NCBI GenBank assembly: GCA_003402375.1
Contig: QFXJ01000017.1
Coordinates: forward strand, 1-64,000
Origin: Candidatus Nitrotoga sp. CP45
GTDB taxonomy: Bacteria > Pseudomonadota > Gammaproteobacteria > Burkholderiales > Gallionellaceae
Reading direction: 5' to 3'
Length of the DNA stretch: 64,000 bases
The notes beneath the pieces are model-generated. The model ran no database searches. It was not told where the DNA came from and saw only the letters and a list, made by a program, of their open reading frames with translations. Each line of letters starts with the position of its first letter. The first letter of the stretch is position 1. Shown here piece after piece: positions 10,264-60,789 of this stretch. Position numbers and translations under genes: made by a program.

Positions 10264-10273
10264 GCACCTGGAA

Positions 10274-20292: not shown

Positions 20293-20295
20293 GGG

Positions 20296-20463
20296 TCAGT
20301 CCCTTGCGCCAAGCACCCGTTCGGTGTGACTAGGTTTATAGGGCACTATGCAACGCAAATGCCGACGCAAGAACAGGCGCCGTAACAACCGCTTCAGCAC
20401 ATAATAGGCAAGTGCGGCTAGCGCTACGCCTGAAAGGAGAGATAACAGGAAATTATCAAGCAT
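20296..20463 (-). CDS. bcsF: Small membrane protein BcsF-like
   Basis: This 55-residue frame sits in the only gap between bcsE and bcsQ. It starts at the ATG at 20463, three nt after the bcsE stop, and ends three nt before bcsQ. The product has one membrane helix (about residues 4-23, LSLLSGVALAALAYYVL), then a strongly basic segment (KRLLRRLFLRRHLR) and a short C-terminal tail. E. coli BcsF is about 63 residues with one N-terminal helix and a basic cytoplasmic tail, and recruits BcsE to the synthase. Position, size and topology support the call; sequence similarity is weak by eye. Confidence 0.8.
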   Translation of the reverse strand: MLDNFLLSLLSGVALAALAYYVLKRLLRRLFLRRHLRCIVPYKPSHTERVLGARD

Positions 20464-20465
20464 TA

Positions 20466-22259: not shown

Positions 22260-22267
22260 ATTTATTT

Positions 22268-22645
22268 TTACCTCAAGGGCCAGAGAATCATGATCCAAAT
22301 CAAACTGGCATTCGCCAATGCCAATAAAACGGCAGCGCTGCCCATGTCTTTTGCTTTTTTGGCCAATGGATGAATATCCAAGGACACTCGATCAACAACG
22401 GCCTCTATGGCCGAATTGATCATCTCCACAACTAGCACCAACATAACACTGCCCACTAACAACACCCGCTGGATCTCACCCACTGGCATCATAAAGGCCA
22501 CTGGCAGAAGAATGATGGCGAGAATAACTTCCTGACGAAAGGCGGCCTCATCTTTCCAGGCAAGTCGCAGTCCCGACAGGGAATAGCCTAGGGCATTTAT
22601 CAACCGACGTAACCCGGTAGCTTTGTGGGGATTCACATTTGTCAT
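22268..22645 (-). CDS. dgkA: Diacylglycerol kinase (DgkA family)
   Basis: DgkA phosphorylates diacylglycerol to phosphatidic acid in the inner membrane. The 125-residue protein has three hydrophobic helices and the family active-site stretch EMINSAIEAVVDRV followed by HPLAKKAKDMGSAAV, complete compared with E. coli DgkA. It is the first gene of the minus-strand bcsEFQAG unit, and its last codons contain the Shine-Dalgarno of bcsE, so co-expression is likely. BcsG would release diacylglycerol from phosphatidylethanolamine, which gives this position a metabolic logic (inference). Confidence 0.95.
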   Translation of the reverse strand: MTNVNPHKATGLRRLINALGYSLSGLRLAWKDEAAFRQEVILAIILLPVAFMMPVGEIQRVLLVGSVMLVLVVEMINSAIEAVVDRVSLDIHPLAKKAKDMGSAAVLLALANASLIWIMILWPLR

Positions 22646-45324: not shown

Positions 45325-47754
45325 TTACTTCATGCAGACGACACGCACCTGATGCATGTCGGTAATGCCGGATAAAACCTTTTCAATGCCATCTTGCTTC
45401 AGGGTACGCATGCCTTCGTTGAGTGCGTTAGCAATCATTTCCGCGACACGGGCGTGTTCCTGTATATTCTTTTTTATCAAATCGGTACCCACCATCAATT
45501 CATGTAAACCCACCCGTCCGCGATAACCTGTGCCGGAACAATCTTCACAGCCAACCGGCTCATACAGCGTGAATCTCCCCATTTCATCCGCGAACAGTTT
45601 GACCCATTCAGCGTACAGTGCCTTATAAGCGGCATTGGCATCCTGCCTCCAGGACGCACAGTTCATAAGCTCTGTCGAATATTCAGCAAGTAATGATTTA
45701 AGCTCATCTTGAGTGGCGGTATGTGGTTTCTTGCACTTCTTACATAAACGTTTGGCTAAACGCTGTGCCAGAACACCTAACAGTGCATCGGAAAAATTAA
45801 ATGGATCCATGCCCATATCCAATAATCGCACTATGGATTCCGGTGCGCTGTTAGTGTGCAGGGTGGCAAACACCAAATGGCCCGTAAGAGAGGCTTCTAT
45901 GCCAATGGAAACCGTTTCCTTGTCGCGCATTTCCCCTACCATAATCACGTCTGGGTCAGCGCGCAAAAAAGCTCTCATGATGGTGGCGAAATCCATACCG
46001 GCCTTTTTGTTGATCTGCACCTGGCGCAGGCCCTTCTGCGTAATTTCTACCGGGTCTTCTGCCGTCCAAATTTTTGTTTCAGGCTTATTAATGTGGCCAA
46101 GCACGGAATGCAAAGTGGTCGTTTTACCGGATCCGGTCGGACCACATACAAAAAATAGGCCGTAAGGTTTGCTGATTACCGCTTTCAGGGTTTCAAGGTT
46201 TCGTGCCGACAAACCCAATTCATTGAGTTTTATCGGCTCGCCGGTGGCCAAAATACGCATCACGATATCTTCCATGCCGCCCTGGGAGGGAATGGTGGCA
46301 ACACGCAATTCAATATCCAGAGGGCCATATTTATTAAACTTGATTTTTCCGTCCTGTGGTTTGCGTTTTTCCGAAATATCAAGGTCGCACATGATTTTGA
46401 TACGCGTAACCAGTGAATTGCGGAAAGATGATGGCACTTCAATGTACGGTAGCAGCGAGCCATCCTTGCGCAGACGAATCACGGTCTTGCCCTTGCCCGG
46501 CGCGGGCTCTACGTGAATGTCGGAAGCTCCCATCCTGTGGGCATCCATGATGATTTTGTTAACCAGCTTGACTAGCTCATTATCCGCCGCAGCACTAACA
46601 TCCTCCTGGATAATGTCATCAACCTCTTCTTCATCTCCTCCCATAGCGGAAAGCATCTCATCCATTGAGGTGTCGCCCATTTCCGAGCCACTGGACATGC
46701 CACCGCCCCCACCTCCGCCAAAGAATAAATTGAGGGTTGCATTGAATTCGCGCTGCGAACAAACCCTGTAGACCAGTCGACTCTTCGAAAAAACGTTATT
46801 AACCACGCGTGAGGTTTGTATCCACTCAGGGTCAGTGGTAAGTATCACCAAGCCTTCACTAACTTCATCTATCGGCACCCATTGGCTGCTTTCTATATAT
46901 TCCCGTTTTAAATTTTTGAGTAAATCAGACGGTTTGGCGCGATCAGCCTTAAACGGTTCGTAGGGCACACCGAAAAAAAGTGCAAGCGATTTACCAAGCG
47001 CGGCCGGTTTAACCTGAAAATCGTCGAGCAATACATCCTCAACATCAGCATTTTTGCGCCGTGCTGTGGACACGACAAGATCCAACTCGTCGGCAGATAA
47101 TACCGCGTCATAAATTAAATGATCATATTTGGTTTTAACAGTGGGTTGCTGCTGGCTTTGGCGAAGCGCTACTGCCAAGTTCTGCGCTAGCTCCAATATC
47201 CCATCTACTATCATCCTCGAAAAAGGCTGGTCGACCTTATTATTGAGAACCTGGATGACACCTGCCAAATCCTTGCTATCTGGATCGAGTATGGGCACCA
47301 CAAGGGCTTGCTTAGTACGATAGCCAGTGCGCTTATCTACGTCTTGCAGAAAGCGTAGGTTTGAACTATACGAAGCAAGCTCTTTTTCGTCATATACATC
47401 CGTGATGTTAAGTAATTTTTTTTGTAGCGCCACATACCCAACAAGACTCTGCTCGGTAACGCGTAGTTTGAGATCTTTGAATGAGTTAGCCCCGGTCTTA
47501 ATTTTTGAAATCAGCGTGGCCTTGTCTTTATCCAGTGAATAAATAGTAAGGCGATCAGCGTTGAATATCGTACATATATCCTTACTAACTCCCAGCATAA
47601 TTTCGTCGAAATTGTATGCAGTATTAATCTTGCTTATGACATGATCATGAATATTACTTATGACCTGATTAAGATTTTTCGTGAACACCAATTGCGCTTC
47701 AATCTGGCTAACATTGGCGCGTCGTTCTAGCTGTATTGTTGGTGTGTTACCCAT
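45325..47754 (-). CDS. GspE/PulE-type secretion ATPase with N-terminal GAF domain
   Basis: From the ATG at 47754 (GGAGAGG Shine-Dalgarno) the product is 809 residues. A GAF sensory domain occupies about 30-200 (ICTIFNADRLTIYSLDKDK, KQALVVPILDP, GVIQVLNNK). A T2SSE/MshE N-terminal-like domain follows at about 220-350, then an acidic Gly-rich linker. The type II/IV assembly ATPase core has ASDIHVEP, Walker A GPTGSGKTTT near 540, Walker B VIMVGEMRD, TGHLVFATLHTNS, and a zinc motif CKKCKK/CEDCSG. The GAF fusion distinguishes it from plain PilB. It may be a signal-responsive pilus assembly ATPase, in line with the pilin gene next door. Confidence 0.9.
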   Translation of the reverse strand: MGNTPTIQLERRANVSQIEAQLVFTKNLNQVISNIHDHVISKINTAYNFDEIMLGVSKDICTIFNADRLTIYSLDKDKATLISKIKTGANSFKDLKLRVTEQSLVGYVALQKKLLNITDVYDEKELASYSSNLRFLQDVDKRTGYRTKQALVVPILDPDSKDLAGVIQVLNNKVDQPFSRMIVDGILELAQNLAVALRQSQQQPTVKTKYDHLIYDAVLSADELDLVVSTARRKNADVEDVLLDDFQVKPAALGKSLALFFGVPYEPFKADRAKPSDLLKNLKREYIESSQWVPIDEVSEGLVILTTDPEWIQTSRVVNNVFSKSRLVYRVCSQREFNATLNLFFGGGGGGGMSSGSEMGDTSMDEMLSAMGGDEEEVDDIIQEDVSAAADNELVKLVNKIIMDAHRMGASDIHVEPAPGKGKTVIRLRKDGSLLPYIEVPSSFRNSLVTRIKIMCDLDISEKRKPQDGKIKFNKYGPLDIELRVATIPSQGGMEDIVMRILATGEPIKLNELGLSARNLETLKAVISKPYGLFFVCGPTGSGKTTTLHSVLGHINKPETKIWTAEDPVEITQKGLRQVQINKKAGMDFATIMRAFLRADPDVIMVGEMRDKETVSIGIEASLTGHLVFATLHTNSAPESIVRLLDMGMDPFNFSDALLGVLAQRLAKRLCKKCKKPHTATQDELKSLLAEYSTELMNCASWRQDANAAYKALYAEWVKLFADEMGRFTLYEPVGCEDCSGTGYRGRVGLHELMVGTDLIKKNIQEHARVAEMIANALNEGMRTLKQDGIEKVLSGITDMHQVRVVCMK

Positions 47755-48085
47755 CCACCTCTCCCTGATAACTCCAAATGCGGCTCGCCGCATGATGAAA
47801 TTGCATAATTTTGTTGCTTGCTATTGATATAGCGGCATTTAGCGAAAATTCTCCATGTCATTTTGAAATAAAGACAAGTTATGCCACCGATATTTAAGGA
47901 GTCGCGTCCATTGTGCTCATAACACAAAATAAAATGCTGCATAGCAAAAATAACACTACCAACATCACAAAATGTGACATTCCGGGCGGAAAACGGCGCA
48001 ACTTTATTTATTGTTCCTACAGGGATAAAAACTCAACTCTTGACCACGCTGTAACAGCACTGGTGTGATCCGTGTAAACATTAGC

Positions 48086-48207
48086 TATAGACTCGGCCCG
48101 ATTTATCCGTGAGTCACCCAGTTTAAATTGCTCATAGAACTTGTATTTATTGACTTGCACGAGTGTCTCTCATACATGAGTCGCGGATAAATCAGGCCGG
48201 ATCAATA
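48086..48207. repeat. MITE-like element, copy 2
   Basis: Identical over its whole length to copy 1 at 23594-23715, in the same orientation. Terminal inverted repeats are 48086-48116 and 48177-48207. The flanks differ from those of copy 1, which defines the element borders. Perfect identity implies recent movement or gene conversion. Confidence 0.8.
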
Positions 48208-48253
48208 ACGCCGCTCGTATCTACCATCCCCCGATGATGAGTAATGTAGATTT

Positions 48254-48379
48254 CTGGGCCGCATCCCACTTAAATTTGAACAGCCCACCCATAAGCTGCC
48301 TGAATGAAAAAAGCGGCTCTGATGATGCAATAGTATAACTAGCGGCCTGCGCCACATTAAACTCAAATTTAAACAGACT
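48254..48379. mobile_element. Relic with two imperfect direct repeats, possibly an IS21-family end
   Basis: Two 33-bp imperfect direct repeats (48254-48286 and 48347-48379, 24 of 33 matching), each containing CAAATTT or CTTAAATTTGAA-like cores, lie just after the FHA gene stop. Multiple spaced terminal repeats of this look are typical of IS21-family ends. No transposase remains. Family assignment is tentative. Confidence 0.35.
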
Positions 48380-48380
48380 C

Positions 48381-49184
48381 TCAACTTTTGAGATAAAACT
48401 CCATCTTGATCCCCGCCAATTCAATAATGTCATGCTCATTAAGCTGGCATGGCTGATCGTCCAACGGCTTGCCATTAAGATTGGGGTAACTTTCTCCCTC
48501 CACATAGGTAATAAAATAACCACGCGGACGGCGAGTAAACACTACAACTTGCAAACCTGATTTACCTACGGTGGTCAGATTTTTCACCAACTCTAGCTCT
48601 TTACCGGCATTAGGGCCATTAAGTATTTGTATTACACCCATTACTTGTTGCGAGCCAGGCACTTTATCGACCGCAGTTGCAAGAGCAGATTGCGGGGGGG
48701 GAGGAACAGCCTCAACCAGCCGCAATTCATTTACGTTCTTGGCGGGTACTAATTGTGGTTGCTCCATAGGCTTTAATTTCCCTGGCATTTCATACGGATC
48801 AGCTTTTACCAAAGTGGGAGCAACGGATGCGATACGGGAAGATGCGCGAAACACCATTGTTTTCTCGAAATCTGCCGCAGTAGATTGGCTTTTCTGATCG
48901 TTCAGATACTTGAGTTTATATTTTCCAATTTCAACCACGTCATTATTTTGCAAAAAATGCTTCTTAATTGCCGCGCCATTTACCAAGGTTCCATTGGTAC
49001 TGTCCAAATCTTCCAAAAAGGAATCATTAAATATGGTCACTATCGCAGCATGCTCACCACTAACAGCAAGGTTATCGATAACAATTTCATTGTGCGGCTT
49101 GCGCCCTACCGTCATGCGTTCCTTGTCCAGAACATATTCCTGCAACACCACACCATCCATGCTTAGTATCAGTTTCGCCGCCAT
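48381..49184 (-). CDS. Double-FHA-domain phosphothreonine-binding protein
   Basis: The 267-residue protein has a canonical N-terminal FHA domain (about 22-90; VGRKPHNEIVIDNLAVSGEHA, DLDSTNGTLVNG, LQNNDVVEIGKYKLKY). A linker rich in Pro, Ala and Val follows, and a second, more divergent FHA-like fold lies at about 185-265 (LTTVGKSGLQVVVFTRRPRGYFI, NGKPLDDQPCQLNEHDIIELAGIKMEFYL). It should read Thr phosphorylation, possibly that of the kinase encoded across the divergent promoter region. It lies 16 bp after the PP2C gene, in the same transcription unit. Confidence 0.9.
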   Translation of the reverse strand: MAAKLILSMDGVVLQEYVLDKERMTVGRKPHNEIVIDNLAVSGEHAAIVTIFNDSFLEDLDSTNGTLVNGAAIKKHFLQNNDVVEIGKYKLKYLNDQKSQSTAADFEKTMVFRASSRIASVAPTLVKADPYEMPGKLKPMEQPQLVPAKNVNELRLVEAVPPPPQSALATAVDKVPGSQQVMGVIQILNGPNAGKELELVKNLTTVGKSGLQVVVFTRRPRGYFITYVEGESYPNLNGKPLDDQPCQLNEHDIIELAGIKMEFYLKS

Positions 49185-49200: not shown

Positions 49201-50025
49201 TTAATTCTTGAACCAGGACAACATTTTTACGAGCCAACCCCGTGGCACAGCAAAATCACCGTTAACTTTAATAAGTATCACAGATACATTATCACGCCCG
49301 CCATTATCATTTGCCATTTCGATCAGCCGTCTCGCCATCAATTGTAGATTGGCACGCAGCATGTGTAGCGTGGCACCAATTTCATTATCTTCGACCATAT
49401 CGTTCAAACCGTCCGAGCATAACAAATAAATATCGCCTACTTGTACCGCATGACTGTGAATTTCCGCCTCGACCGCTGGTTCCACTCCGACCGCGCGTGT
49501 AATCAGATTTTTGTTTTTGGATAGTCGCGCATCTTTTTGGCTTAACATGCCTCTGTCAACTTGCTCCTGCAACAATGAATGGTCACGGGTGATAGGCTCA
49601 AATAGTTCACCGCGCAATCGGTACATTCGCGAATCACCAACGTGGGCGACTGCTAAACGGTTGTCATAAAATAAACCGGCTACCACTGTGGTACCCATCC
49701 CAGCGCATTGTGGCTGGCTCTGCGACGTATGATAAATAGAGGCATTGGCTTTTTGAATTTTTTCACGTAACAGCATTATTCCAACATCTTCACCGCCTTC
49801 ACTCCGGTCTTCGGGACGCATGCTTTCCAAACTATGCTTCATTTCGGTCGTTATCAACGAAACTGTAATGCCACTCGCAATTTCACCCGCATTATGCCCA
49901 CCCATGCCGTCAGCCAGCACCACCAACCCGCACGACGCGTCATAAGCCACGCTATCTTCGTTATGCGATCGCACAGCACCTGGATGGGTCTGGCTAACCA
50001 TTTCCAACGCCTGTTTAATATTCAT
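49201..50025 (-). CDS. PP2C-family protein serine/threonine phosphatase
   Basis: The 274-residue cytosolic enzyme carries all PPM motifs: RSHNEDSVAY, VVLADGMGGHNAGEIAS (metal-binding Asp), GMGTTVVAGLFYDNRLAVAHVGDSRMYRLR, LCSDGLNDMVED and NGGRDNVSVILI. It should reverse Ser/Thr phosphorylation. It is first in the PP2C-FHA minus-strand unit, divergent from the cyclase-kinase gene. Phosphatase, FHA reader and kinase together form a typical Ser/Thr phospho-signalling set. Confidence 0.95.
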   Translation of the reverse strand: MNIKQALEMVSQTHPGAVRSHNEDSVAYDASCGLVVLADGMGGHNAGEIASGITVSLITTEMKHSLESMRPEDRSEGGEDVGIMLLREKIQKANASIYHTSQSQPQCAGMGTTVVAGLFYDNRLAVAHVGDSRMYRLRGELFEPITRDHSLLQEQVDRGMLSQKDARLSKNKNLITRAVGVEPAVEAEIHSHAVQVGDIYLLCSDGLNDMVEDNEIGATLHMLRANLQLMARRLIEMANDNGGRDNVSVILIKVNGDFAVPRGWLVKMLSWFKN

Positions 50026-50714
50026 ATGGCATCTCTATATATTCAAAATTCTAAGCGTAATCAGAGTACAAACTCTGGTCGGTTTTAAGCAGATAGCTCT
50101 GCTATATCGATACCTACGAAGCTTCGCCGCAATGGGGTCTGATTTATGGGACACCTTAATTTTTATCCATGCAAATTTACCGTATGCGGTCGATTACCCC
50201 AGTCATTCCGGCACTGATAAAAAACTTCTTTATCGGCAGAAATGTCAACAACTTGCATTTTAATTTTCAGGATTACCACTTTTTCTAGCGTAACATTTTT
50301 ATGGCCCACCATGCATATCAACGGTGGATTGGAATATCGACGAACACATCTATACAGGGTAAAAATAGCACCCTGTTACTGCACGCCAAACAAATAAAAT
50401 AAAAAACGGCTCTATGTGAAATAGCGTGGGTAATCAACTTTCAACCCTCCGCAGAAGAGATAAATCCGCTCATCTTGCACTTATCGAAGAGTTACCCACT
50501 ACGAATCATTAGAGAACCTAAAAATCCAAAGCCAAGCTAAAGTTTCCTAAAGCCCATCCGTTATTTCAGATAGCCGCTGCTAATTATGCCTTGCAGCATA
50601 AGGTAACGTACAAAGGCACTGCCACAATCATCCTAGCTTACGAATGCAGGCCATGAATCTAACCATCGAATTTTTCTCATCTCTCCACAGAACCTTACAT
50701 TTTGGTGTGGACAC
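50026..50714. other. Divergent intergenic region between PP2C and cyclase-kinase genes
   Basis: About 690 bp without a convincing gene. It must hold promoters for PP2C-FHA and for the Pil-Chp operon. Bases 50130-50160 contain a GGGTCTGATTTATGGGACACC string that looks like intergenic repeat debris, and 50513-50527 resembles the CTAAAAATCCA ends of the palindromic repeats near valS. I found no reliable CRP-type site or sigma-54 promoter by eye. Confidence 0.4.
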
Positions 50715-52490
50715 ATGATTACATCATCCAAGATAAGTCTTATCGCATTGCCTAATGCCGTTTCTATACATCTACAGCAGACTGAAACCATACGTAAGTT
50801 AATAGCTGAAGATAGCGCTGGATACACTCCTGCCCGCAACCATTCAATGCTATACCAAACTAATGAATGCAGCACCCATACCAAACTGCACCGAAATACC
50901 CTACCAAACAGCGGAATAGTCATTCCTGCGGCCCAGATCACAGTTAATGGTTCAGTACTCTTCGTCGATATCCGCAACTTTACTATGTTCGCCGACCAAC
51001 TTCACGGCGAAGAGGTTGTTGAATTTTTGAATACATTCTTTGAACGAGCGTATGAGCCAGTCCGTCAGCAATGTGGATGGGTAGTGAGATTCATCGGCGA
51101 TGGAATGGCAGCAATGTTTGAACCAGGCGCGCAACAACCGGATGACCACGCCGAGCGTGCACTTAAAGTGGCACTCCTAATAGTGCTCGCCGCCGACTCC
51201 TTCCGTGAGTGGATCGCGCAACGCTTTCCAAAACGAAAATTGCCGGAGTTTGCAGTCGGTGTCGGCATACATTCAGGCGAAGTGATGATCTGCAATATGG
51301 GCAGTGGCACCGCAATCGAAACCACCATAATCGGCGATACGGTAAACATCGCTGCACGTCTGCAAACGATGTCGGAAGTACTCGGCTGGAGCATAACAAC
51401 GAGCCGTACCTGCGCAAATATGGCCGGAGACCGTTTTCAGCTCGGCCGTGACAGTATGGTGACTATAAAAGGAAAAGCGCTACCAATCCAGGTCATAGAG
51501 ATTGTAGGGCTCTACCCACGCACCGCAAGCGCCCACACTGATAACGCTTTTTACGATAAGCTGAATCGATCTGTAGCTGTAAATACGGCAATATTTGAAT
51601 TGTCACGAGAACAGGCAGACTCAATTCAAAACCCTATTTTTAACACCGAAAATACACTCAAACGGATTCCTCAAGATCAATCGATCAAACTGGATGGTTA
51701 TCGCTTACTGCGCAAGCTAGGGCAGGGTGGAATGTCTGAGGTTTTTCTCGCAGAAAATCTCGTCACGCATACCCATCAAGTACTAAAACTTATCCCGACA
51801 ATAGATATTGACATCGACCACGATGACGTATTGCAACGTTTTTTGCATGAATTCGCACTAATTTCGCAAATCGATCATCCCAACGTCGCACGCATCTATC
51901 ATCAGGGTTTTACCTCGACCCACGCTTATATCTCAATGGAATTTTTTCCCGGCGGAGATTTACGGTGTCTAATCTCTGAAACCCACACACCACAGGTCGC
52001 AATCGCTTCGTTGCTACAAATTCTAGGCGGACTCTCGGCGATTCACGCACTGGGTATCATTCATTGCGATATGAAACCTGACAATGTGATGATTCGCAGG
52101 GACGGCTCGCTTGCACTCGCCGATTTCGGCATTGCCGAGCATTCCGACGCAGTCCGGTTACCTACCCGCCCCGATGAAATCATGGGTTCACCGTCATATC
52201 TCGCGCCTGAGCAGGCGTTGGATCTACCCGTCGACGAGCGGACAGATCTGTACAGCACAGGAGCCATGTTTTACGAAATGTTGACAGGACGGCCACCTTA
52301 CAAAGGGAATTCCGTGCAGGCGGTTCTTTACCAACACGTAAATCTCCCGGTACCCCTATTGCCCGTGGGTCTTGAACGATTTCAACCCATCCTGAATCGC
52401 ATGATGGCCAAATCGGCCGCAGCACGTTTTAAAAGTGCCGACGCGGTCGTCGAGTACATCATTTCTTCAGGCTTGATCGGAAACCTATGA
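50715..52490 (+). CDS. Class III adenylate cyclase fused to a Ser/Thr protein kinase
   Basis: The 591-residue protein joins two signalling enzymes. Residues about 75-265 form a class III nucleotidyl cyclase domain with both metal Asp residues (VDIRNFT Asp85, GDG Asp129) and the catalytic Asn211 and Arg215 in GDTVNIAARLQ. Residues about 327-585 form a Hanks-type kinase: GQGGMSEVF glycine loop, Lys358, HCDMKPDN (Asp452, Asn457), DFG (470-472), SPSYLAPEQ. The HRD arginine is Cys451, so it is a non-RD kinase. There is no membrane helix; residues 1-70 are unassigned. The stop overlaps the next ATG (ATGA), coupling it to the response regulator. Confidence 0.93.
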   Translation: MITSSKISLIALPNAVSIHLQQTETIRKLIAEDSAGYTPARNHSMLYQTNECSTHTKLHRNTLPNSGIVIPAAQITVNGSVLFVDIRNFTMFADQLHGEEVVEFLNTFFERAYEPVRQQCGWVVRFIGDGMAAMFEPGAQQPDDHAERALKVALLIVLAADSFREWIAQRFPKRKLPEFAVGVGIHSGEVMICNMGSGTAIETTIIGDTVNIAARLQTMSEVLGWSITTSRTCANMAGDRFQLGRDSMVTIKGKALPIQVIEIVGLYPRTASAHTDNAFYDKLNRSVAVNTAIFELSREQADSIQNPIFNTENTLKRIPQDQSIKLDGYRLLRKLGQGGMSEVFLAENLVTHTHQVLKLIPTIDIDIDHDDVLQRFLHEFALISQIDHPNVARIYHQGFTSTHAYISMEFFPGGDLRCLISETHTPQVAIASLLQILGGLSAIHALGIIHCDMKPDNVMIRRDGSLALADFGIAEHSDAVRLPTRPDEIMGSPSYLAPEQALDLPVDERTDLYSTGAMFYEMLTGRPPYKGNSVQAVLYQHVNLPVPLLPVGLERFQPILNRMMAKSAAARFKSADAVVEYIISSGLIGNL

Positions 52491-53425
52491 TGATGGAAAC
52501 GTCCTCAACCGTGTCACCGGCAAAGCCCCAATACACCGTCGATGTCCACGGCTTCAGCCAGACTGAACGGATTATTTTGAAAAGCATTTTCAGCCTATCC
52601 GCGCGCCGCGCGCCTAAATTTGTCGAGTTTATGCCGACAATGGATTCGATGCCGGACGTTTTTCTCGTTGATGCTGAAGACGCGAATGCGATAGCGGATT
52701 TTCGTCAAAAAAATGCCATGAACACCCGGCCTGCGATTCTGATTGGCGACACCAATCACGGCATTTCATGCACAACTTTATCACGGCCATTACAGTGGAC
52801 AAAGATGTTCAAAGCATTCGATCTCGCAGTAGGAATTAACACGCCTAGCCCAATACCAAAACCAGAGCTTTCAGTTCGTATAGCGGCTCCCTATGAGAAA
52901 ACTCAGCCAATGGTCGCCTTAATGCCAACCCTGCGATCATCAGCGCCCCCGATCACCCCACCACAACTATCAAATACAACGACACTTAAATCAAACCCAG
53001 TAAATCAAAAGTTGGCAGATAACCTGACGCTAGCAAATCCTCCCGATCGGCCATTTAACTGGGTGTTGGTCTGCGACGACAATATGACTGTGCGTGAATT
53101 CATGCGGGCAAAACTCGCACCATTTGGTTTCAATGTCGATTACGCCGAAACAGGGGAGCAAGCAGTTGGACTCACCGGCACTAAACACTACGCCTGCGTT
53201 TTTCTCGATGTCGTGATGCCAGGAATCAATGGTTATCAGGTTTGTAAGCTTATCAAATCCAAGAAAAGTGCCGCAAAAACTGCGGTGGTGATGCTATCGA
53301 GCAAAGATTCAACTTTCGACAAAATCCGGGCAACCATGTCTGGCTGCGATACGTACCTCACAAAACCAGTCAACGAAAATCGCCTTTTCGAAGTAATCAG
53401 CAAATACTTGCCAACGAATGCCTGA
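52487..53425 (+). CDS. Response regulator with N-terminal pseudo-receiver, PilG-like
   Basis: The 312-residue protein has a C-terminal receiver domain (about 190-312) with acidic pair Asp197/Asp198, phospho-acceptor Asp241 (FLDVVMPGINGY) and Lys293 (TKPVNENR). The N-terminal part (about 16-120) has a receiver-like pattern (VFLVDAEDANAIADF, RPAILIG, SRPLQWTKMFKAF) but without the Lys and acidic pair, so it looks like a pseudo-receiver. A Pro-rich linker joins them. No DNA-binding domain. By position it corresponds to PilG of Pil-Chp systems. Its start overlaps the cyclase-kinase stop by 4 bp. Confidence 0.85.
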   Translation: MMMETSSTVSPAKPQYTVDVHGFSQTERIILKSIFSLSARRAPKFVEFMPTMDSMPDVFLVDAEDANAIADFRQKNAMNTRPAILIGDTNHGISCTTLSRPLQWTKMFKAFDLAVGINTPSPIPKPELSVRIAAPYEKTQPMVALMPTLRSSAPPITPPQLSNTTTLKSNPVNQKLADNLTLANPPDRPFNWVLVCDDNMTVREFMRAKLAPFGFNVDYAETGEQAVGLTGTKHYACVFLDVVMPGINGYQVCKLIKSKKSAAKTAVVMLSSKDSTFDKIRATMSGCDTYLTKPVNENRLFEVISKYLPTNA

Positions 53426-53473
53426 CCCCGACCACATTATATTTAACTCAATTCAATTAAAGGAAGAGCAACC

Positions 53474-53836
53474 ATGACAATCAAGAAAGTTCTTTGTGTC
53501 GACGATTCGTATACTGATCTTGTCAATATTCAAAAAATCGTAATCAGCACAGGCCGCTTTGTTGTCACTGCCGCCAACGGCAAGGAAGCGATCGAAATGA
53601 CCAAATCCGAGAAACCGGATTTGATCTTCATGGACGTAAACATGCCGGACATGGATGGCTTTGCCGCGACCCGCGCTTTGAAAAAGGATCCCGCGACCAA
53701 GGACATTCCGGTCGTGTTCGTAACCAGTAAGGATCAGAAAGCAGACAAGATGTGGGGGCAAATGCAGGGAGGGAGCGGATATGTCGTTAAACCGTATACA
53801 TCCGACGATATCGTCAGGCTCGTCAACACGTTATGA
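53474..53836 (+). CDS. pilH: CheY-like response regulator PilH
   Basis: A 120-residue single receiver domain: Asp10/Asp11, phospho-acceptor Asp54 (FMDVNMPDMDGF), Thr in VFVTSKDQ and Lys in VVKPY. The KKVLCVDDSYTDL start and the KADKMWGQMQGGSGYVVKPY segment are typical of PilH. In Pseudomonas it acts with PilG downstream of ChpA to control pilus retraction and extension. A Shine-Dalgarno (AGGAAG) precedes it. Confidence 0.9.
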   Translation: MTIKKVLCVDDSYTDLVNIQKIVISTGRFVVTAANGKEAIEMTKSEKPDLIFMDVNMPDMDGFAATRALKKDPATKDIPVVFVTSKDQKADKMWGQMQGGSGYVVKPYTSDDIVRLVNTL

Positions 53837-53893
53837 CGGCTCCGTTCTCACGTTTGAACGCCCTTTTGCCGATCCATTCTGTACGGGACAACC

Positions 53894-54451
53894 ATGCAAA
53901 ACGAGATCAACTCTGCTGATTCGCTGCTAGCGCCGAGCGTAGCACTGCACCCGGCGCGTACGGCAGGAGAGCTTATGGCTATCGGGCTCCCTCGACAGTA
54001 TGGAGATCCCCTTGCCGCAGCTCAGGAATGGATAGGTTTTGACGTGGCGAACATTAAATTTCTTGTTCCGCACGCACACGTAAGCGAAATTTCTGAAATG
54101 CTGCCTGTTTTTCGCCTTCCTAACACTGGCCGTTGGTTGCTCGGTCTAGTGAACCTGCACGGTAATCTTGTGCCGGTATTTGACCTAGCGTCGCTCGTCG
54201 GTGGCACATGTGACACGAAATCGAAAACAATGCTCCTCGTGCTTGGTCGCGGTGAGTCGATCGCAGCCATCGTGGTTAACGGTATTCCGAACCGCAAGCG
54301 TTTCGATGCTTCGAACCGAACCCCGCTTCCAGCGTTCCCAGCAGCAATCCGTGACTACGTATCGAACGCTTATGCAGAAGAAGCCACAGTGTGGCTGGAA
54401 CTCTACCACACCCGCTTCTTCGAAATGATGGCACGCAGAATCCCAGGCTGA
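53894..54451 (+). CDS. pilI: CheW-like adaptor PilI
   Basis: A 185-residue protein with one CheW domain (about 40-175): WIGFDVANIKFLVPHAHVSEIS, TGRWLLGLVNLHGNLVPVFDLASLVG, LGRGESIAAIVVNG. It should couple the PilJ-type receptor to the ChpA-type kinase. Position between pilH and the receptor gene matches PilI. Confidence 0.9.
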   Translation: MQNEINSADSLLAPSVALHPARTAGELMAIGLPRQYGDPLAAAQEWIGFDVANIKFLVPHAHVSEISEMLPVFRLPNTGRWLLGLVNLHGNLVPVFDLASLVGGTCDTKSKTMLLVLGRGESIAAIVVNGIPNRKRFDASNRTPLPAFPAAIRDYVSNAYAEEATVWLELYHTRFFEMMARRIPG

Positions 54452-54491
54452 CGTACCTGGCCTTAATTTACGACCCTCCTGGAGAAATAAA

Positions 54492-56810
54492 ATGAAAAAC
54501 AGACTAAACTTTACTTTTCTTACACGGATAAAATTGTGGCAAAAATTCCTGCTTCTGGGCGCCGTTGCGCTACCCGCTGCCGGAGTGCCTGCCTATCTGT
54601 TCTTGACGCAGACCATCGCCGCCATCCAGACCGCCAAGCTCGAAGCTAGTGGTATTGCCCCAGCGGCAAAGCTGCTTAAAGTAATCCAGAATACCCAACA
54701 GCATCGCGGCTTGGCCGCCGCTTTCATCGGTGGCAATGCTTCCGTTGCTACAGATCGCGCCGCAAAGGAAACGGAGGTTGCCCAGGCCATCAGCACCTTT
54801 GACGCATACATGAAAGATAACAACAATACCAAACAAGCCGAGACGTGGGACAAGATAAAAACCGATTGGACACGAATCGCAGCCGAGACCGCGAGCCAAC
54901 ACACGGACACACGCAAATCATTTACTGATCACTCTGCACTGGTAGCTACCGAACTGGCCCTGCTTGATCTTCTTATGGATCATTACAAGCTTTCGTTCGA
55001 ATCAGATACCGCGACACACTTCTTGATCCAAGCCACGCTATCAGACCTGCCCCGAGTATCTGAGACATTGGGGCAGGCACGGGCTTTTGGGGTTGCCCGT
55101 CTCGCGGAAGCCGAACGCTTAACCGTCGATCAAAACTCCGGTATTGAACTAGGCAAAGAAACGCTCACCTTGACCGACCGCGCAACGATGGCAACTCTAA
55201 TTTCGTCATTAATTGCCAAAACCAATCAAGCGACTAATCAGCTAAGCAAAGCACAGGCTGAAGAGGCGCGGATTAAAGATCAAATTGCAGGTAGAGATCA
55301 AGCCGCTGAAGAACAAATCAAGTACCTTGCCGATCTGGCCGCCTCAGAAATTAGCAATGCGCAGCGGCTCCAATTTAGCTCAGCAGAGTATGTCAAGCAA
55401 TTCACGAGCGGCATCAATTATCAGTTCAAATTAATCGATATCGCGATGGTAGCGCTAAACAACGAATTACAATTCAAAGTTGCAAACCTGCTCAACCGTT
55501 CATTAATCCTATCGGGCGTGGTAATCGCCTTTATCATATTTGCTGCGCTTCTCGCCTTGCTGATCACACGAAATGTCACCGACACAGTACGTTTATTGCA
55601 GCTATCGGTCGAAAAGGTACGTGGCGGAGATAACACCGCACTAAACTCGATTGAGGCAAAGGACGAGGTCGGCGATTTGGGACGGACGGTTAATCAACTG
55701 CTAGAAGAACGTATGGCCGCGCAACGCAAAGCTGAAGCGGAAACCGAAGCACTCAATGACTCGGTGATCTCGCTCCTGCAAACCATGCAGAAACTCTCGG
55801 AGAAAAATCTCACGGTCAAGGCACCTGTCACGCAAGACATTGTGGGTACGGTGTCTGATGCCGTAAATCAGCATACTGAAGAAACGAGCAAAGTGCTTTA
55901 TCGGGTAATGCAGATCGCCGGCCAGGTGGAAAATTCATCGGTCAAATTGAAAGGGCAGGCAGATCAAGTGCAAGCGACAGCTGCAGTGGAACGCAAAGGC
56001 GTCGAGGAAATGATCCGCGAGCTCGCCACTTCAACCGAAGCCATGAACAATGTGGCACAGCTCACCGCAAAATCCCACATTGCGTCCGGTGATGCGACCC
56101 GTTCAACCCTCTCTGCGCTCAATGCTGTAACCGGAACAATGAAGGGCATGAACTCAATCCGTGAAATGATTGCCGAGACCGAAAAGCGAATAAAACGCCT
56201 TGGCGAGCGTTCGCAGGAAATTAGCGGCATCGTGAATTTGATCAATACAATCGCGGAGCGCACACATGTACTTGCGTTGAACGCGAGCGTACAGGCTGCA
56301 GTCGCAGGAGATGCAGGCCGTGGTTTCGCGGTGGTAGCTGAGGAAGTGCAACGTCTTGCCGAATCCTCACGCAACGCTACAGCGCAAATTGGCACGTTGG
56401 TGAATAACATTCAAATCGAGACGAACGACACTATCAATACAGTGAACAAGACAATCTCTCAAGTAGTGCAAGGAACTGAATTTGCTGAAAAAGCCGGTGT
56501 TCAAATGGCGGAAACACAGAAGGCAACCGACAATTTAGTGGAATTAGTACTGCAGATCGCCGCCAGCCTGGAGGTACAAATCAAGAGCGCAGAAATTCTG
56601 CAAAATAGAGTCGAAGATATTGGCCGTAGTGCGGAAAAAACCGGAGAACAGATTACAACCCAGACAGCCGAAACTAACCTGCTCTCCAGATCCGCCGAGC
56701 AATTGGTGAAAACGGTGGGCGTATTCAAGCTACCTAACGCACAAGCTCTTGGATTGTCGACCATGCCAGAGCGTACGAGCGCCATGCCCAAGCTTCAAGC
56801 GGTTGGTTAA
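54492..56810 (+). CDS. pilJ: Methyl-accepting chemotaxis protein PilJ
   Basis: The 772-residue receptor has a first membrane helix (about 15-40), a large periplasmic region whose start (LLKVIQNTQQHRGLAAAFIGG) resembles NIT-type sensor domains, a second helix (about 337-360), a HAMP domain (about 360-415; LLQLSVEKVRGGD), and a cytoplasmic signalling hairpin with tip INTIAERTHVLALNASVQAA followed by AGDAGRGFAVVAEEVQRLAESS, a PilJ-like variant of the MCP tip. It should sense surface contact or pilus state and feed the ChpA kinase. A GGAG Shine-Dalgarno lies upstream. Confidence 0.92.
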   Translation: MKNRLNFTFLTRIKLWQKFLLLGAVALPAAGVPAYLFLTQTIAAIQTAKLEASGIAPAAKLLKVIQNTQQHRGLAAAFIGGNASVATDRAAKETEVAQAISTFDAYMKDNNNTKQAETWDKIKTDWTRIAAETASQHTDTRKSFTDHSALVATELALLDLLMDHYKLSFESDTATHFLIQATLSDLPRVSETLGQARAFGVARLAEAERLTVDQNSGIELGKETLTLTDRATMATLISSLIAKTNQATNQLSKAQAEEARIKDQIAGRDQAAEEQIKYLADLAASEISNAQRLQFSSAEYVKQFTSGINYQFKLIDIAMVALNNELQFKVANLLNRSLILSGVVIAFIIFAALLALLITRNVTDTVRLLQLSVEKVRGGDNTALNSIEAKDEVGDLGRTVNQLLEERMAAQRKAEAETEALNDSVISLLQTMQKLSEKNLTVKAPVTQDIVGTVSDAVNQHTEETSKVLYRVMQIAGQVENSSVKLKGQADQVQATAAVERKGVEEMIRELATSTEAMNNVAQLTAKSHIASGDATRSTLSALNAVTGTMKGMNSIREMIAETEKRIKRLGERSQEISGIVNLINTIAERTHVLALNASVQAAVAGDAGRGFAVVAEEVQRLAESSRNATAQIGTLVNNIQIETNDTINTVNKTISQVVQGTEFAEKAGVQMAETQKATDNLVELVLQIAASLEVQIKSAEILQNRVEDIGRSAEKTGEQITTQTAETNLLSRSAEQLVKTVGVFKLPNAQALGLSTMPERTSAMPKLQAVG

Positions 56811-56868
56811 GCCTGCAATGACGGCGGTACGCTTGTGCCGTCATGCTTCGACCTGAGGACCATAGAAA

Positions 56869-59800
56869 ATGCAAATGAGCGATTTCATCGAAGCGCTACT
56901 AACCGAAATAAAAGAGGTGCGCGCCGATCTTGCTGGTTGGATCGCAACGATTTGTTCGGCTGTCCCCGAAGACCCCACATTCGGCGACGCACTTGATCAA
57001 TATGTCGGTCAAGTCGAACGAACAGCGTCAACTTGCGGAATGCTCGGACTGCGCGGCTTGGAGTCCTGTTGCGCTCAGGTACAGGAATGCCTGGTGGTCA
57101 TTGTTGGGCTTAATGCGGAAGAGCGCGGCGCAGCGCAAGCCTTCTTCGATCTCTGGCCCGATCTTGTGCTCGCTTACCTCGCTGACATCACGAACTTCGA
57201 GTCCGCAGAGCACTTGGCACAATATTTTTCCCTCCCCCCCTGTCCATCACCCGTAAATGCAGAGCGCAGCCTCGAACTCATTATCGAGCTCACCACCGAA
57301 CCGGTGCTAGCGGGGTATTTACGCGCAGAAGCAGAGGCCGAGGAGCTGGAACGTCCGCGCGTGGCGACTGATGAAGACGTCTCCCTTGCACTGCCGGACG
57401 ATGTGGATCGGAGCGTGTATGAAGCGCTGCTTCAAGAAGCGCCAACACAGGCCGCCGAGCTTTCAACCTACATCCGCAATATTGTGGACGGCGAAGCCAC
57501 GGACGAGGATATGGCCGCAGCAAAGCGCATTGCGCACTCGTTAAAAGGTTCGGCAAACATTGTCGGCATCCGGGGCATCGCAACGCTCGGACACCACACA
57601 GAAGACATCCTCGAATGGTTCGAGCAAAACCAGACACGCCCCCCGTTAGCGCTTACCAATACACTGCTCGACGCGGCAGCGTGCTTGGAACAAATGATAG
57701 GCTCCCTGCTCGGCATCGAGGATGCCCCCACACATACACAAGCGAAGGAAATATTGCAGTCTGTTCTTGATTGGGCAAGCCGGATTCACTCAAGAAGTAT
57801 TGAGGACGAAGTCGATGCCGCCCCGCCTGTACTTGCCGATCTCGACACGTCGCTCCCAGCACCAACTGAAAGCACTGATCTCGATGCAACGTTTGCCATT
57901 CAAATAGAATTCAATGATCTTAACTCGACGCCCCCAATCCAGGCTAAAAATGCAAATCTTGATGCGATGTTTCCGGCTTTGATTGAAGCTGCCCATCACA
58001 ACGCAACGCCCCGGGCATTAACTGAAACCTTCAGGGAAGAAGAATCTTCTTTGCCCAGCAATGTGACCAACCAGACTCCAGTCGCTTCAATAATACGCGT
58101 CCCGGTTACAACCATGGACGAACTCTTCCGTCTCACTGGTGAGCTATCTGTAAAGATTGGGCAACTTACCGAGCAAGTAAAACAGGCTCAGCAACGTACT
58201 AACGGCTTATTACGTCAGAATCTCAAGGTACAGCAGCGAATTTTTGATCTTGAGAACCTGGTTGACATCCGCGGCCTCGCGAGTCTGCGCGACACGCAAA
58301 TCTCTCACGGTGACCCAATATTTGATGCACTGGAAATGGAACAGTACACCGAGCTTCAGAGCAATACCCGCGCGCTAACAGAAGAAGCCGCCGACACACG
58401 GGAATTCAGCCGGCGCATTGAGGAGGACGTGGCACAGATGGGCGCCGTACTTCAACAAACGCAGCGGGTACAGCGCGACCTTCAGTACATGGCCATGACC
58501 ACTCGCATGAGTCCAGTGGGAAGCCTCGCCCCTCGCCTGCACCGCAACATCCGCCAGACTTCACAGCAAACAGGAAAAAAAGCAAAGCTGATAATTGAAG
58601 GGGAAGATATCCTAATCGACGGAGACATGCTGAGCAACCTCGTCGACCCGCTACTGCATATACTGCGAAACGCCATCGATCACGGTATTGAAACACCCGA
58701 TGAACGTAGGTACTCCGGGAAACCGGAGGTGTCTACAATTCATCTTAAATTCTCCCGGCGCGGCCAGACGGTTACTGTGTGTTGCCGGGACGACGGGCGC
58801 GGACTCAACTACGACGCAATCCGACACAAGGCGATTGAGCGCGGCCTGATGCAAGCTGGCCAGGATGTCTCCAAGGAAGAATTGTCACGCTTCATTCTGC
58901 TTCCTGGCTTTTCAACACGGGAACACACAAATGAAATATCGGGACGTGGCGTCGGACTCGATGTGGTGCGCGACCGTCTTCTTGTCATGAAAGGAATGGT
59001 CGAAGTACGGTCTGAATCCGGAAAAGGCAGCGAGTTTCTACTGCGCTTCCAGGCGTCGCTCGTCGCCCAACACGCATTACTCATAGAATCCTCCACCCAG
59101 ATTTTTGCGGTGCCCAGCTACGCGTTGGATCAAGCATTACCACCCGCCGCAGGAGAATTCATATCAATCGGCAGCGAAATAAACCTGCGCTATCAAAAAC
59201 ATACCTATCCGGTAAAGGCCCTGAATGCGCTGATCGGTTATGACAGCGGCGAGATGACGCCAGAAATCATGAATTCGAAGTCGGTATTGCTGGTTCACGT
59301 CGACCTTGATATTCATGCGGTACTGGTCGACCGCATCGTTGACGGTCGCGACCTGATCCTCAAAGATCCGGGCCGCTATGTAAAGAAAATTAATGGCGTG
59401 GGCGGGATCGCGATTCTGGGTGATGGCACCGTCGCACCGCTGCTCGATTTAGCCGAATTGCTACGTCTTCCCATGCCGCAATCGATAGAAGCTTCAGCCT
59501 CCATTTCCACAGGCAACCATGAAACATCAATGCGACGCGATATTCTCGTTGTAGATGATTCCCTTAGCGTACGTAAATCGCTAGTTCAACTCGTAAGTGA
59601 CGCAGGATATAACGTGAAAGCAGCGAAAGATGGATTAGAGGCAGTCGCACTCCTAAATGATTTCATACCCGGAGTGATACTCACTGACCTTGAAATGCCA
59701 AACATGAACGGGCTCGAGTTCACTTCACACCTGCGCGCGCGCCCCGACACCCGCGAGCTGCCGGTAATCATGATCACTTCTCGCTCCATGGACAAACATC

Positions 59801-59901
59801 GTAAGCAGGCCGAGCTCGCTGGGGTTAGCATATACATGACCAAACCCTACACCGACACCGACCTTCTCGGGCATATCCACAGCGCGATCGGCGGGGTGTA
59901 A
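56869..59901 (+). CDS. Hybrid chemotaxis histidine kinase ChpA/PilL-type
   Basis: The 1010-residue CheA-like kinase of the pilus chemosensory system. Domains in order: a degenerate N-terminal Hpt-like helix bundle without the phospho-His (about 1-110); an active Hpt with His223 in AHSLKGSANIVG; a repetitive linker (about 315-390); a dimerisation region; a HATPase (HILRNAIDHGIE, CRDDGRGLNYDAI, SGRGVGLDVVRDRL); a CheW domain (about 735-870); and a C-terminal receiver with phospho-acceptor Asp940 (LTDLEMPNMNGL). Pseudomonas ChpA has many more Hpt modules. The stop overlaps the next start (TAATG). Confidence 0.92.
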   Translation: MQMSDFIEALLTEIKEVRADLAGWIATICSAVPEDPTFGDALDQYVGQVERTASTCGMLGLRGLESCCAQVQECLVVIVGLNAEERGAAQAFFDLWPDLVLAYLADITNFESAEHLAQYFSLPPCPSPVNAERSLELIIELTTEPVLAGYLRAEAEAEELERPRVATDEDVSLALPDDVDRSVYEALLQEAPTQAAELSTYIRNIVDGEATDEDMAAAKRIAHSLKGSANIVGIRGIATLGHHTEDILEWFEQNQTRPPLALTNTLLDAAACLEQMIGSLLGIEDAPTHTQAKEILQSVLDWASRIHSRSIEDEVDAAPPVLADLDTSLPAPTESTDLDATFAIQIEFNDLNSTPPIQAKNANLDAMFPALIEAAHHNATPRALTETFREEESSLPSNVTNQTPVASIIRVPVTTMDELFRLTGELSVKIGQLTEQVKQAQQRTNGLLRQNLKVQQRIFDLENLVDIRGLASLRDTQISHGDPIFDALEMEQYTELQSNTRALTEEAADTREFSRRIEEDVAQMGAVLQQTQRVQRDLQYMAMTTRMSPVGSLAPRLHRNIRQTSQQTGKKAKLIIEGEDILIDGDMLSNLVDPLLHILRNAIDHGIETPDERRYSGKPEVSTIHLKFSRRGQTVTVCCRDDGRGLNYDAIRHKAIERGLMQAGQDVSKEELSRFILLPGFSTREHTNEISGRGVGLDVVRDRLLVMKGMVEVRSESGKGSEFLLRFQASLVAQHALLIESSTQIFAVPSYALDQALPPAAGEFISIGSEINLRYQKHTYPVKALNALIGYDSGEMTPEIMNSKSVLLVHVDLDIHAVLVDRIVDGRDLILKDPGRYVKKINGVGGIAILGDGTVAPLLDLAELLRLPMPQSIEASASISTGNHETSMRRDILVVDDSLSVRKSLVQLVSDAGYNVKAAKDGLEAVALLNDFIPGVILTDLEMPNMNGLEFTSHLRARPDTRELPVIMITSRSMDKHRKQAELAGVSIYMTKPYTDTDLLGHIHSAIGGV

Positions 59902-60350
59902 TGAACACCACAGCAGCCGGGTACGCGTTGATCTGCTTTGACGGTCTGAATTTACTCATCGACCAACACGCGATCGTCTGCCTTAATGATATGGCCATGT
60001 TACAAAGCGGAGGTCATGAAGAAAAAGCACGCGAAGCCATTGAAGAGACTGCATGCAAAGTACATTCGCTAACTGCACACTTGATCGTGGCAGACAAAAT
60101 TGATACACGGTGTCGATACATTGTCGTACTACAGGCAGATGAGCATCACTTCGGCATTACCGTGGACTCGGTACAATCGCTCCCCACTCAAAATCCAATA
60201 CTACATTCTTTACCCGCGTGCATGAACCTCTCTGGATCGCCAATCAAAGCTTACGTACAAATTAAAGAAAATATCGCATTCTGTTGCGATGTCGGCACAT
60301 TGTGGTGTTACATCAACTCCTCGGAGAGCAGGCATGAATATGAAGCATAA
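59901..60350 (+). CDS. CheW-like protein, first copy
   Basis: The 149-residue protein has a single divergent CheW fold: an N-terminal strand set ALICFDGLNLLIDQHAIVCL, the central ICRYIVVLQADEHHFGITVDSVQSL-type segment, and a C-terminal WCYIN. It may play the role of ChpC. The start overlaps the CheA-type stop (TAATG), so it belongs to the operon. The sequence is clearly diverged from PilI. Confidence 0.75.
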   Translation: MNTTAAGYALICFDGLNLLIDQHAIVCLNDMAMLQSGGHEEKAREAIEETACKVHSLTAHLIVADKIDTRCRYIVVLQADEHHFGITVDSVQSLPTQNPILHSLPACMNLSGSPIKAYVQIKENIAFCCDVGTLWCYINSSESRHEYEA

Positions 60351-60789
60351 CGCCGTTTTGTTCGAGTTCACGAGTGGCCACCACGCAGCAATCGGTCTGC
60401 ACGAAGTCGCCGAACTCGTCATGTCGCCAAGGCTTGTACCTGTACCGCTGGCTCCAGATTACTGCCATTCGCTTTGTATTTGGCAGGATCGCGCCATTCC
60501 ATTTGTTGAGTTGGCACCGCTCATCGGCCAACGTTCTCTGGAAAAAATTAGTCTTGCGCTGGTTGTCACGTATTTTGCCCGATCAAACGGCGAGCAACGA
60601 TGGGGCGCTCTAGGTCTATCTGCCTATTTTCGAATGGTGAGCGTCGGAGACGATGCAGCGTGTTTGCTACCCCAAGATTCGTCCGCATGGATATCTATCG
60701 CCCACTCGTGCTTCCAACTGGTAGATGAAAACGTTCCCATTCTGAATTTAGACGCCCTGTTTGAGCAACGCCTAGAGTTGATTTCATAA
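60334..60789 (+). CDS. CheW-like protein, second copy
   Basis: From the ATG at 60334 (GGAG about 8 nt upstream) the 151-residue protein again has CheW features: LFEFTSGHHAAIGLHEVAELV, a CIWQDRAIPFVELAPLIG segment in place of the usual RG.v.pvvdL strand, and ending VPILNLDALFEQ. It overlaps the previous gene by 17 bp. It is the last gene of the Pil-Chp operon. A second ATG two codons on is possible. No CheB- or CheR-type gene follows. Confidence 0.75.
   Translation: MNMKHNAVLFEFTSGHHAAIGLHEVAELVMSPRLVPVPLAPDYCHSLCIWQDRAIPFVELAPLIGQRSLEKISLALVVTYFARSNGEQRWGALGLSAYFRMVSVGDDAACLLPQDSSAWISIAHSCFQLVDENVPILNLDALFEQRLELIS

What the first reader, a model, noticed from the sequence alone, without database searches (positions are those of the whole stretch)
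50715..60789. Pil-Chp chemosensory operon headed by an adenylate cyclase-Ser/Thr kinase fusion
The first gene encodes a class III cyclase domain with intact metal and transition-state residues fused to a Hanks kinase, and its stop overlaps the start of the PilG-like regulator. In Pseudomonas the Pil-Chp system controls a separate cyclase (CyaB) encoded elsewhere. Here cAMP synthesis, Ser/Thr phosphorylation and pilus chemosensing appear hard-wired in one transcript, and the divergent unit encodes a PP2C phosphatase and an FHA reader. This could be an undescribed integrated surface-sensing module in which the receptor or response regulators tune cAMP and kinase output together.
Basis: partly seen in the sequence, partly recalled or inferred. 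Interest (0 to 1): 0.82.

Follow-up and report, generated by a model that had tools for sequence, protein, structure and literature searches.

The report
Fused cyclase-kinase heading pilus-sensing operon
A nitrite-oxidising bacterium carries a fused cyclase and protein-kinase gene, coupled to a pilus-type chemosensory operon and placed beside a phosphatase and a pilus motor gene; comparison with relatives suggests that the kinase half matters most, while the cAMP-making half looks worn in this genus.

Summary
In this Candidatus Nitrotoga genome a class III cyclase-Hanks kinase gene (CK, 50715-52490) overlaps by 4 bp a chemosensory operon (52487-60789) and lies divergent to PP2C-FHA-pilus ATPase genes. 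The operon follows CK in all 12 Nitrotoga genomes that carry CK; PP2C adjoins CK in 11 (contig end in one).

The interpretation needs three changes. (1) The operon is a short-ChpA, Pil-Chp-like paralogue; 13 of 13 other family loci where its head was seen lack CK. (2) CK belongs to a wider receiver-cyclase-kinase family. An RR312-like regulator follows it in Nitrotoga and four other lineages, one of which (G522) has the same operon. (3) PP2C, FHA and the ATPase come from an older family cluster with separate CHASE2 kinase, CHASE2 cyclase and phosphodiesterase genes. These three were not found in this genome; phosphodiesterase remnants survive in relatives.

Nitrotoga CK lacks the receiver; its substrate lysine is arginine in 11 of 11, and two species lost a further cyclase residue. 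Eight of nine kinase residues checked are canonical and unchanged.

Best reading: a chemosensory-linked Ser/Thr kinase that replaced the cluster's own kinase; cAMP output is doubtful. No function was tested.

The parts
50715..52490 (+). CK: class III cyclase domain (residues 79-254) fused to Hanks Ser/Thr kinase (329-580); the receiver found in relatives outside the genus is absent; substrate Lys is Arg125; kinase HRD is HCD
52487..53425 (+). RR312: two-part regulator, conserved N-terminal domain of unknown fold plus C-terminal receiver; start overlaps CK stop
53474..53836 (+). PilH-like single receiver
53894..54451 (+). PilI-like CheW
54492..56810 (+). PilJ-like MCP with HAMP
56869..59901 (+). 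short ChpA-like CheA (Hpt, HATPase, CheW, receiver)
59901..60350 (+). 149-aa ORF without Pfam or NCBIfam hit, conserved in place
60289..60789 (+). ChpC-like CheW; true start may lie inside the ORF
49201..50025 (-). PP2C phosphatase; relatives in 148 of 158 family genomes
48381..49184 (-). FHA protein
47794..48380 (-). gap where many relatives carry cyclase and/or phosphodiesterase genes; phosphodiesterase remnants stand out in four other Nitrotoga loci, not in the window
45325..47793 (-). GAF-MshEN-T2SSE pilus-type ATPase (not the only PilB-like ATPase of the genome)
50026..50714 (.). 689-bp divergent intergenic region; no clear remnant of the lost CHASE2 kinase

Best explanation
CK is a receiver-cyclase-kinase family protein that has been worn down to a kinase-centred output in Nitrotoga. 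Inferred mechanism: PilJ-ChpA phosphorylate RR312 and/or PilH; RR312, translated with CK, controls CK in place of the receiver that CK lacks; CK phosphorylates Ser/Thr sites, PP2C reverses this, FHA reads them, and the target is the neighbouring GAF-MshEN pilus ATPase or its partners. The cyclase domain is kept mainly as a dimerising or nucleotide-binding regulatory part, with weak or no cAMP synthesis. In this lineage CK took over from the separate CHASE2 kinase of the older PP2C-FHA-ATPase cluster, which also lost its cyclase and phosphodiesterase. Shown: gene order, overlap, absences in this genome, remnants in relatives, residue states, trees. Inferred: every protein-protein and enzymatic step.
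For: Coupling: ATGA/GTGA overlap in 12 of 12, synteny. CK followed by an RR312-like gene in Nitrotoga, G009 (about 330 bp apart), G522, G214 and G333. The G009 homologue has a Pfam receiver ahead of cyclase and kinase; some order relatives sit next to hybrid histidine kinases or a CheA cluster, so the family looks like a response-regulator output. Kinase: 8 of 9 residues checked are canonical and unchanged in 11 of 11 full-length Nitrotoga CKs, the ninth (HRD Arg) is Cys in 11 of 11; median dN/dS 0.078 against 0.166 for the cyclase domain. Cyclase: Lys to Arg in 11 of 11 plus two further losses; by comparison all six residues stand in 12 of 12 CHASE2 cyclases and in 12 of the 13 aligned relatives that carry Lys, the thirteenth being a fragment. 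Replacement: the old cluster in relatives; no CHASE2 kinase, CHASE2 cyclase or this phosphodiesterase found in this genome; remnants in others.
Against: The cyclase domain still evolves under purifying selection (dN/dS 0.166); D85, T204 and N211 keep the expected letter in 11 of 11 and D129 and R215 in 10 of 11, and Lys to Arg may be tolerated. Seven of 11 Nitrotoga CKs keep everything but Lys with an intact GDG motif. The receiver Asp is seen in only 10 of 18 aligned relatives; six have another residue and two no residue there, so a receiver-driven output is not general. Three relatives (L190-L192) lost the kinase HRD Asp too. A single-domain cNMP-binding protein on contig C8 could bind cAMP (motif recalled). 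The genome keeps another PilB-like ATPase. G108, a CK carrier, has a separate phosphodiesterase relative at 47%. The two extra residue losses rest on one genome record each.
Confidence: 0.45

Rival explanations
1. One reading: CK is an active adenylate cyclase and kinase, and the chemosensory pathway sets cAMP and Ser/Thr phosphorylation together.
For: Both metal Asp, the substrate Thr, Asn and transition-state Arg are present in the window; 12 Lys-bearing relatives have the full set; the older cluster also joined kinase, cyclase and phosphodiesterase; a possible cNMP-binding effector exists.
Against: Substrate Lys is Arg in 11 of 11; Asp129 lost in L010, Arg215 lost in L005; the 5 aligned relatives with Arg there all lost further cyclase residues; 9 of 12 CK-bearing Nitrotoga gave no match to the cluster's phosphodiesterase.
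Confidence: 0.25
2. CK acts upstream: it phosphorylates PilJ, ChpA, PilH or RR312 and so tunes the chemosensory pathway, rather than being its output.
For: Overlap with RR312 and no receiver of its own in Nitrotoga.
Against: Receiver-bearing relatives, some beside histidine kinases, point to CK as taking a signal.
Confidence: 0.18
3. The gene order is a shared transcription unit without a shared pathway; CK serves the PP2C-FHA cluster only.
For: 13 of 13 other family loci with the operon's head in view have no CK; CK lies beside PP2C in all 11 CK-bearing Nitrotoga loci where that side is assembled.
Against: CK is found with an RR312-like gene and no PP2C called nearby in G009, G522, G214 and G333.
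Confidence: 0.12

Closest known systems
Pil-Chp system of Pseudomonas aeruginosa with CyaB (review PMC12632253, passages seen)
   Same: CheA/MCP/CheW/receiver set of the pilus type; in Pseudomonas PilG activates the cyclase CyaB
   Different: Here the CheA is a short ChpA-like protein, no CheR/CheB hit in the operon, the first regulator has an extra N-terminal domain, and the cyclase is fused to a kinase and encoded in the operon
TOMM system kinase/cyclase fusion (TIGR03903)
   Same: Ser/Thr kinase and cyclase in one protein, by the family's name
   Different: The best-matching stretch of the window's CK is its kinase part, at the N end of the 1267-position model; 122 bits against a cut-off of 706
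CHASE2 kinase-PP2C-FHA-CHASE2 cyclase-phosphodiesterase-PilB-like ATPase cluster of the family (described here)
   Same: Related PP2C, FHA and ATPase genes in the same order
   Different: Separate CHASE2 kinase and cyclase genes with intact cyclase residues, no chemosensory operon attached in the loci seen
Receiver-cyclase-kinase proteins of the same order
   Same: Cyclase-kinase part 27-53% identical to the window's; RR312-like partner in some
   Different: An N-terminal receiver region aligns in most of them; 13 of 18 aligned keep the substrate lysine

Membership tests
Pil-Chp chemosensory system | CheA-type kinase with Hpt, HATPase, CheW and receiver domains, beside MCP, CheW and PilG/PilH-type receivers | tested here: met
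Pil-Chp chemosensory system | Long ChpA with many Hpt-like domains (recalled) | tested here: not met
   1010 aa, one Hpt hit; no long ChpA among this genome's matches; long ChpA next door in 5 g6 loci
Pil-Chp chemosensory system | PilK/ChpB methyltransferase and methylesterase | tested here: not met
   no CheR or CheB Pfam hit among the eight ORFs of 50715-60789; the rest of the genome was not searched for them
Pil-Chp chemosensory system | Controls type IV pili | not testable with these tools
   a PilB-like ATPase and ORFs that I read by eye as pilins and PilY1 adjoin; function untested
Active class III adenylate cyclase | Two metal Asp, Asn and transition-state Arg | tested here: inconclusive
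   present in the window; one lost in each of two Nitrotoga species
Active class III adenylate cyclase | Substrate-specifying Lys with Thr/Asp | tested here: not met
   Arg in 11 of 11, Thr in 11 of 11; roles of the positions recalled
Hanks-type Ser/Thr kinase | Gly loop, VAIK-type Lys, alpha-C Glu, HRD Asp, DFG Asp, APE Glu | tested here: met
   11 of 11 each; HRD Arg is Cys
Receiver-cyclase-kinase family | N-terminal receiver | tested here: not met
   absent in all 11 Nitrotoga proteins; their cyclase-kinase part groups inside the family tree

The most novel reading that the evidence does not exclude
Receiver-cyclase-kinase proteins are an undescribed class of response-regulator output that turns His-Asp phosphorelay into Ser/Thr phosphorylation. 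They were joined to the same pilus-type chemosensory operon in three lineages, perhaps more than once, each time with an RR312 partner. Several groups lost cyclase residues while keeping the kinase (one small group lost both). In Nitrotoga the fused protein displaced a separate kinase and a cAMP cyclase-phosphodiesterase pair from a pilus-ATPase cluster.
Probability: 0.3. Interest if true: 0.75.

Novelty: new variant of a known kind. Interest (0 to 1): 0.55.

Why it matters
If true, it is a natural case where two-component chemosensing, Ser/Thr phosphorylation and a pilus motor are wired at one locus, and where a second-messenger step appears to be dropped during evolution. Species with intact and with broken cyclase residues in one genus offer ready-made comparisons for whether the cyclase domain matters. 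It would also give a lead on how nitrite-oxidising Nitrotoga might control pili.

Tried and rejected
Rejected: that CK arose by fusing the cluster's own CHASE2 kinase and cyclase (26-32% identity to either, against 46% to the G009 protein, and up to 53% to f3 proteins). That the ~420-aa kinase of relatives is the missing PP2C partner (its 15 fetched loci gave no PP2C, FHA or ATPase match as best hit of any called ORF). That other CHASE2 proteins of Nitrotoga are the relocated kinase (three of the longer ones tested are GGDEF-EAL proteins, the window genome's single one is CHASE2 alone).

Inconclusive: remnant of the CHASE2 kinase upstream of PP2C (27.7 bits in L007 against a shuffled maximum of 26.2); phosphodiesterase remnant in the window itself (up to 20 bits); N-terminal RR312 domain as pseudo-receiver. 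One origin or two for the CK-operon linkage: the CK tree rejects a Nitrotoga+G009+G522 clade (p 0.013), but the ChpA tree (p 0.091) and the three-gene tree (p 0.112) do not; these groups were named after seeing trees. Against two origins: of 11 non-Nitrotoga PilJ proteins aligned, only that of G522 aligns over nearly all of the window's N-terminal 340 residues (335, 27% identical; the other ten 181-201 residues, 9-19%).

Papers: the listings (no paper) showed no title or abstract start on this arrangement; only passages of PMC12632253 and one passage of PMC10734462 were read. The library lacks most subscription papers, so this is weak evidence of novelty.
Full report
Observation. The window lies in a 2.8-Mb genome whose nearest named match is Candidatus Nitrotoga MKT (CK 98% identical). 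ORF 50715-52490 has a class III cyclase and a Hanks kinase domain, followed on the same strand by a regulator, PilH-, CheW-, MCP-, CheA- and CheW-type genes; PP2C and FHA genes are divergent. The described feature is real.

Conservation in the genus. Of 19 genomes of the genus (window included), 11 have CK over nearly its whole length, one (G111) has its C-terminal part at a contig end, and seven have none (four of these match with kinases only). In all 12 carriers the operon follows, and the stop/start overlap is ATGA in 11 and GTGA in one. PP2C lies beside CK in 11; in G111 PP2C is on another contig next to a transposase-like ORF, read by eye, so CK may be interrupted there, which is not proven.

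Wider chemosensory operon. Matches to this ChpA at E up to 1e-30 exist in 151 of 158 family genomes, many to other CheA kinds. I fetched 16 family loci around near ones. Besides G009 (L089), 13 of the other 15 show an RR312-like gene ahead of the pilJ/chpA genes; L095 and L096 are cut by contig ends inside pilJ and chpA. No CK relative was called in these 15. In five g6 loci the operon stands directly after a long-ChpA operon. This genome showed no long ChpA: its other CheA matches lie in open frames of 635 and 735 aa.

CK outside the genus. G009 (same family, another genus) has a receiver-cyclase-kinase protein followed by RR312-, PilH- and PilI-like genes up to the contig end. In 399 genomes of the order, 46 matched that protein at 1e-60, many over the kinase alone. 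I fetched 17 loci. G522 carries the same operon from CK to the last CheW gene, with no pilI called by my ORF picker. G214 and G333 have an RR312-like gene (26-31% identical) right after CK. Four of five f3 loci have a large gene with receiver similarity downstream; the one tested is a hybrid histidine kinase, as is the large gene of the G333 locus. G443 has CheA and hybrid kinase genes and an MCP-like ORF nearby. The other nine loci showed no such neighbour among called ORFs. Fifteen family genomes have a 34-36% fusion; 11 of these loci were examined, none held other relatives of the window's genes, and the one tested lies between RadC and EF-Tu.

Receiver. Pfam was run only on the G009 protein (receiver at 4-115). 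In the alignment of 18 proteins (17 order loci plus G009), the receiver Asp is seen in 10, another residue in six, and none in two (L180 and L185, whose starts were cut). So the receiver is not functional, or not present, in every member.

Residues. Cyclase positions D85, K125, D129, T204, N211, R215 (roles recalled): 12 of 12 CHASE2 cyclases aligned keep all six (read from the alignment). Of the 18 proteins, 13 have Lys; 12 of these show all six and one is a fragment that lacks the first; the other five have Arg there and further losses, and three of these five (L190-L192) also lack the kinase HRD Asp. The 11 unlinked family fusions keep none of the six but keep the four kinase residues checked. 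The 11 full-length Nitrotoga proteins have Arg at 125; L010 has His for D129, L005 has His for R215. L006 and L011 changed a neighbouring Gly of the GDG motif. Seven of 11 thus differ from the full set by the Lys alone with GDG intact. Kinase positions: eight canonical residues unchanged in 11 of 11; the HRD Arg is Cys in 11 of 11. Median dN/dS among 11 (G111 left out): cyclase 0.166, kinase 0.078, PP2C 0.106, FHA 0.135, ATPase 0.072, RR312 receiver 0.049 and N part 0.243. So the cyclase domain is constrained but its active site is not strictly so.

The divergent unit. PP2C relatives are found in 148 of 158 family genomes. Of 20 loci fetched around it, two are Nitrotoga of the CK-type layout (G111, and G106, in which no CK was found). 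Of the other 18, 17 have a kinase ORF called ahead of PP2C (not L136) and 12 have a cyclase ORF after FHA; it is not called in L129, L133, L135 and L136, and L137 and L142 are cut. The ATPase gene follows where the stretch reaches, except that none was called in L127 and L134. PP2C or FHA was not called in a few because of overlapping ORFs (L128, L135, L143, L144). Pfam was run on one kinase (CHASE2-Pkinase), one cyclase (CHASE2-cyclase) and one gene between cyclase and ATPase (metallo-beta-lactamase with PDEase_II); CHASE2 was also found in the cluster kinases of G101, G104 and G112 and the cluster cyclases of G104 and G112. These three genomes of the same genus have no CK and the older layout, G101 without the cyclase.

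Losses in this genome. CHASE2 occurs once, without kinase or cyclase hit; only two class III cyclases exist; a CK search finds one other kinase; the phosphodiesterase gives no match. Among the 12 CK carriers nine give no phosphodiesterase match; G108 has a 47% relative elsewhere plus a remnant, G111 a remnant, G103 a weak match elsewhere. Remnants between FHA and ATPase score 78 bits in L007 (G108), 59 in G106, 54 in G111, 42 in L050 and 28 in L049, against a maximum of 26 in 20 sets of 13 shuffled gaps; L006 equals that maximum, and none stands out in the window.

Trees. The cyclase-kinase part of Nitrotoga groups with the f3 proteins (100/97), with G009 and G522 outside, and a Nitrotoga+G009+G522 clade is rejected (p 0.013). 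Its ChpA groups with g6 operons that lack CK (95/95), while G009 and G522 pair (97/98), but the alternative is not rejected. CK thus joined this operon twice, or was displaced in place, or was lost in g6.

cAMP targets. Four cNMP-binding domain proteins exist: by eye two look like FNR/CRP-type regulators and two are single domains; which, if any, bind cAMP is unknown.

Mechanism. The anatomy suggests that a chemosensory phosphorelay, through RR312, sets the activity of a kinase that with PP2C and FHA acts near a second PilB-like ATPase (the genome has five T2SSE matches over the cut-off: the window's, one other in a 591-aa frame and three in PilT-sized frames). Each functional step is inference.

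Noticed in passing
L003 1351-2631 (own genome contig C50): The genome's second class III cyclase, a 426-aa protein, has His at the transition-state Arg position, so both cyclases of this genome deviate from the usual set.
   Followed up: partly
L053-L063: A separate group of kinase fusions in the family has lost all six cyclase catalytic residues in 11 of 11 loci while keeping the four kinase residues checked; the one locus tested lies between RadC and EF-Tu genes.
   Followed up: partly
L090, L091, L092, L093, L101: Long-ChpA and short-ChpA pilus-type chemosensory operons stand in tandem.
   Followed up: partly
L139 9019-9761: Transposase-like ORF (read by eye) beside PP2C in G111, whose CK is cut at a contig end on another contig.
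   Followed up: partly
window 45325-47793: The ATPase carries an MshEN domain, a type known (recalled) to bind c-di-GMP in some proteins.
   Followed up: no
window 59901-60350: Conserved 149-aa ORF between chpA and chpC without Pfam or NCBIfam hit; a similar ORF (24%) lies at the same place in G522.
   Followed up: partly
L138, L139: The PP2C genes of G106 and G111 have an in-frame TAG within the matched length.
   Followed up: no
window 7906-22298: ORF sizes and order look like a cellulose synthesis cluster; a guess from sequence starts, not tested.
   Followed up: no
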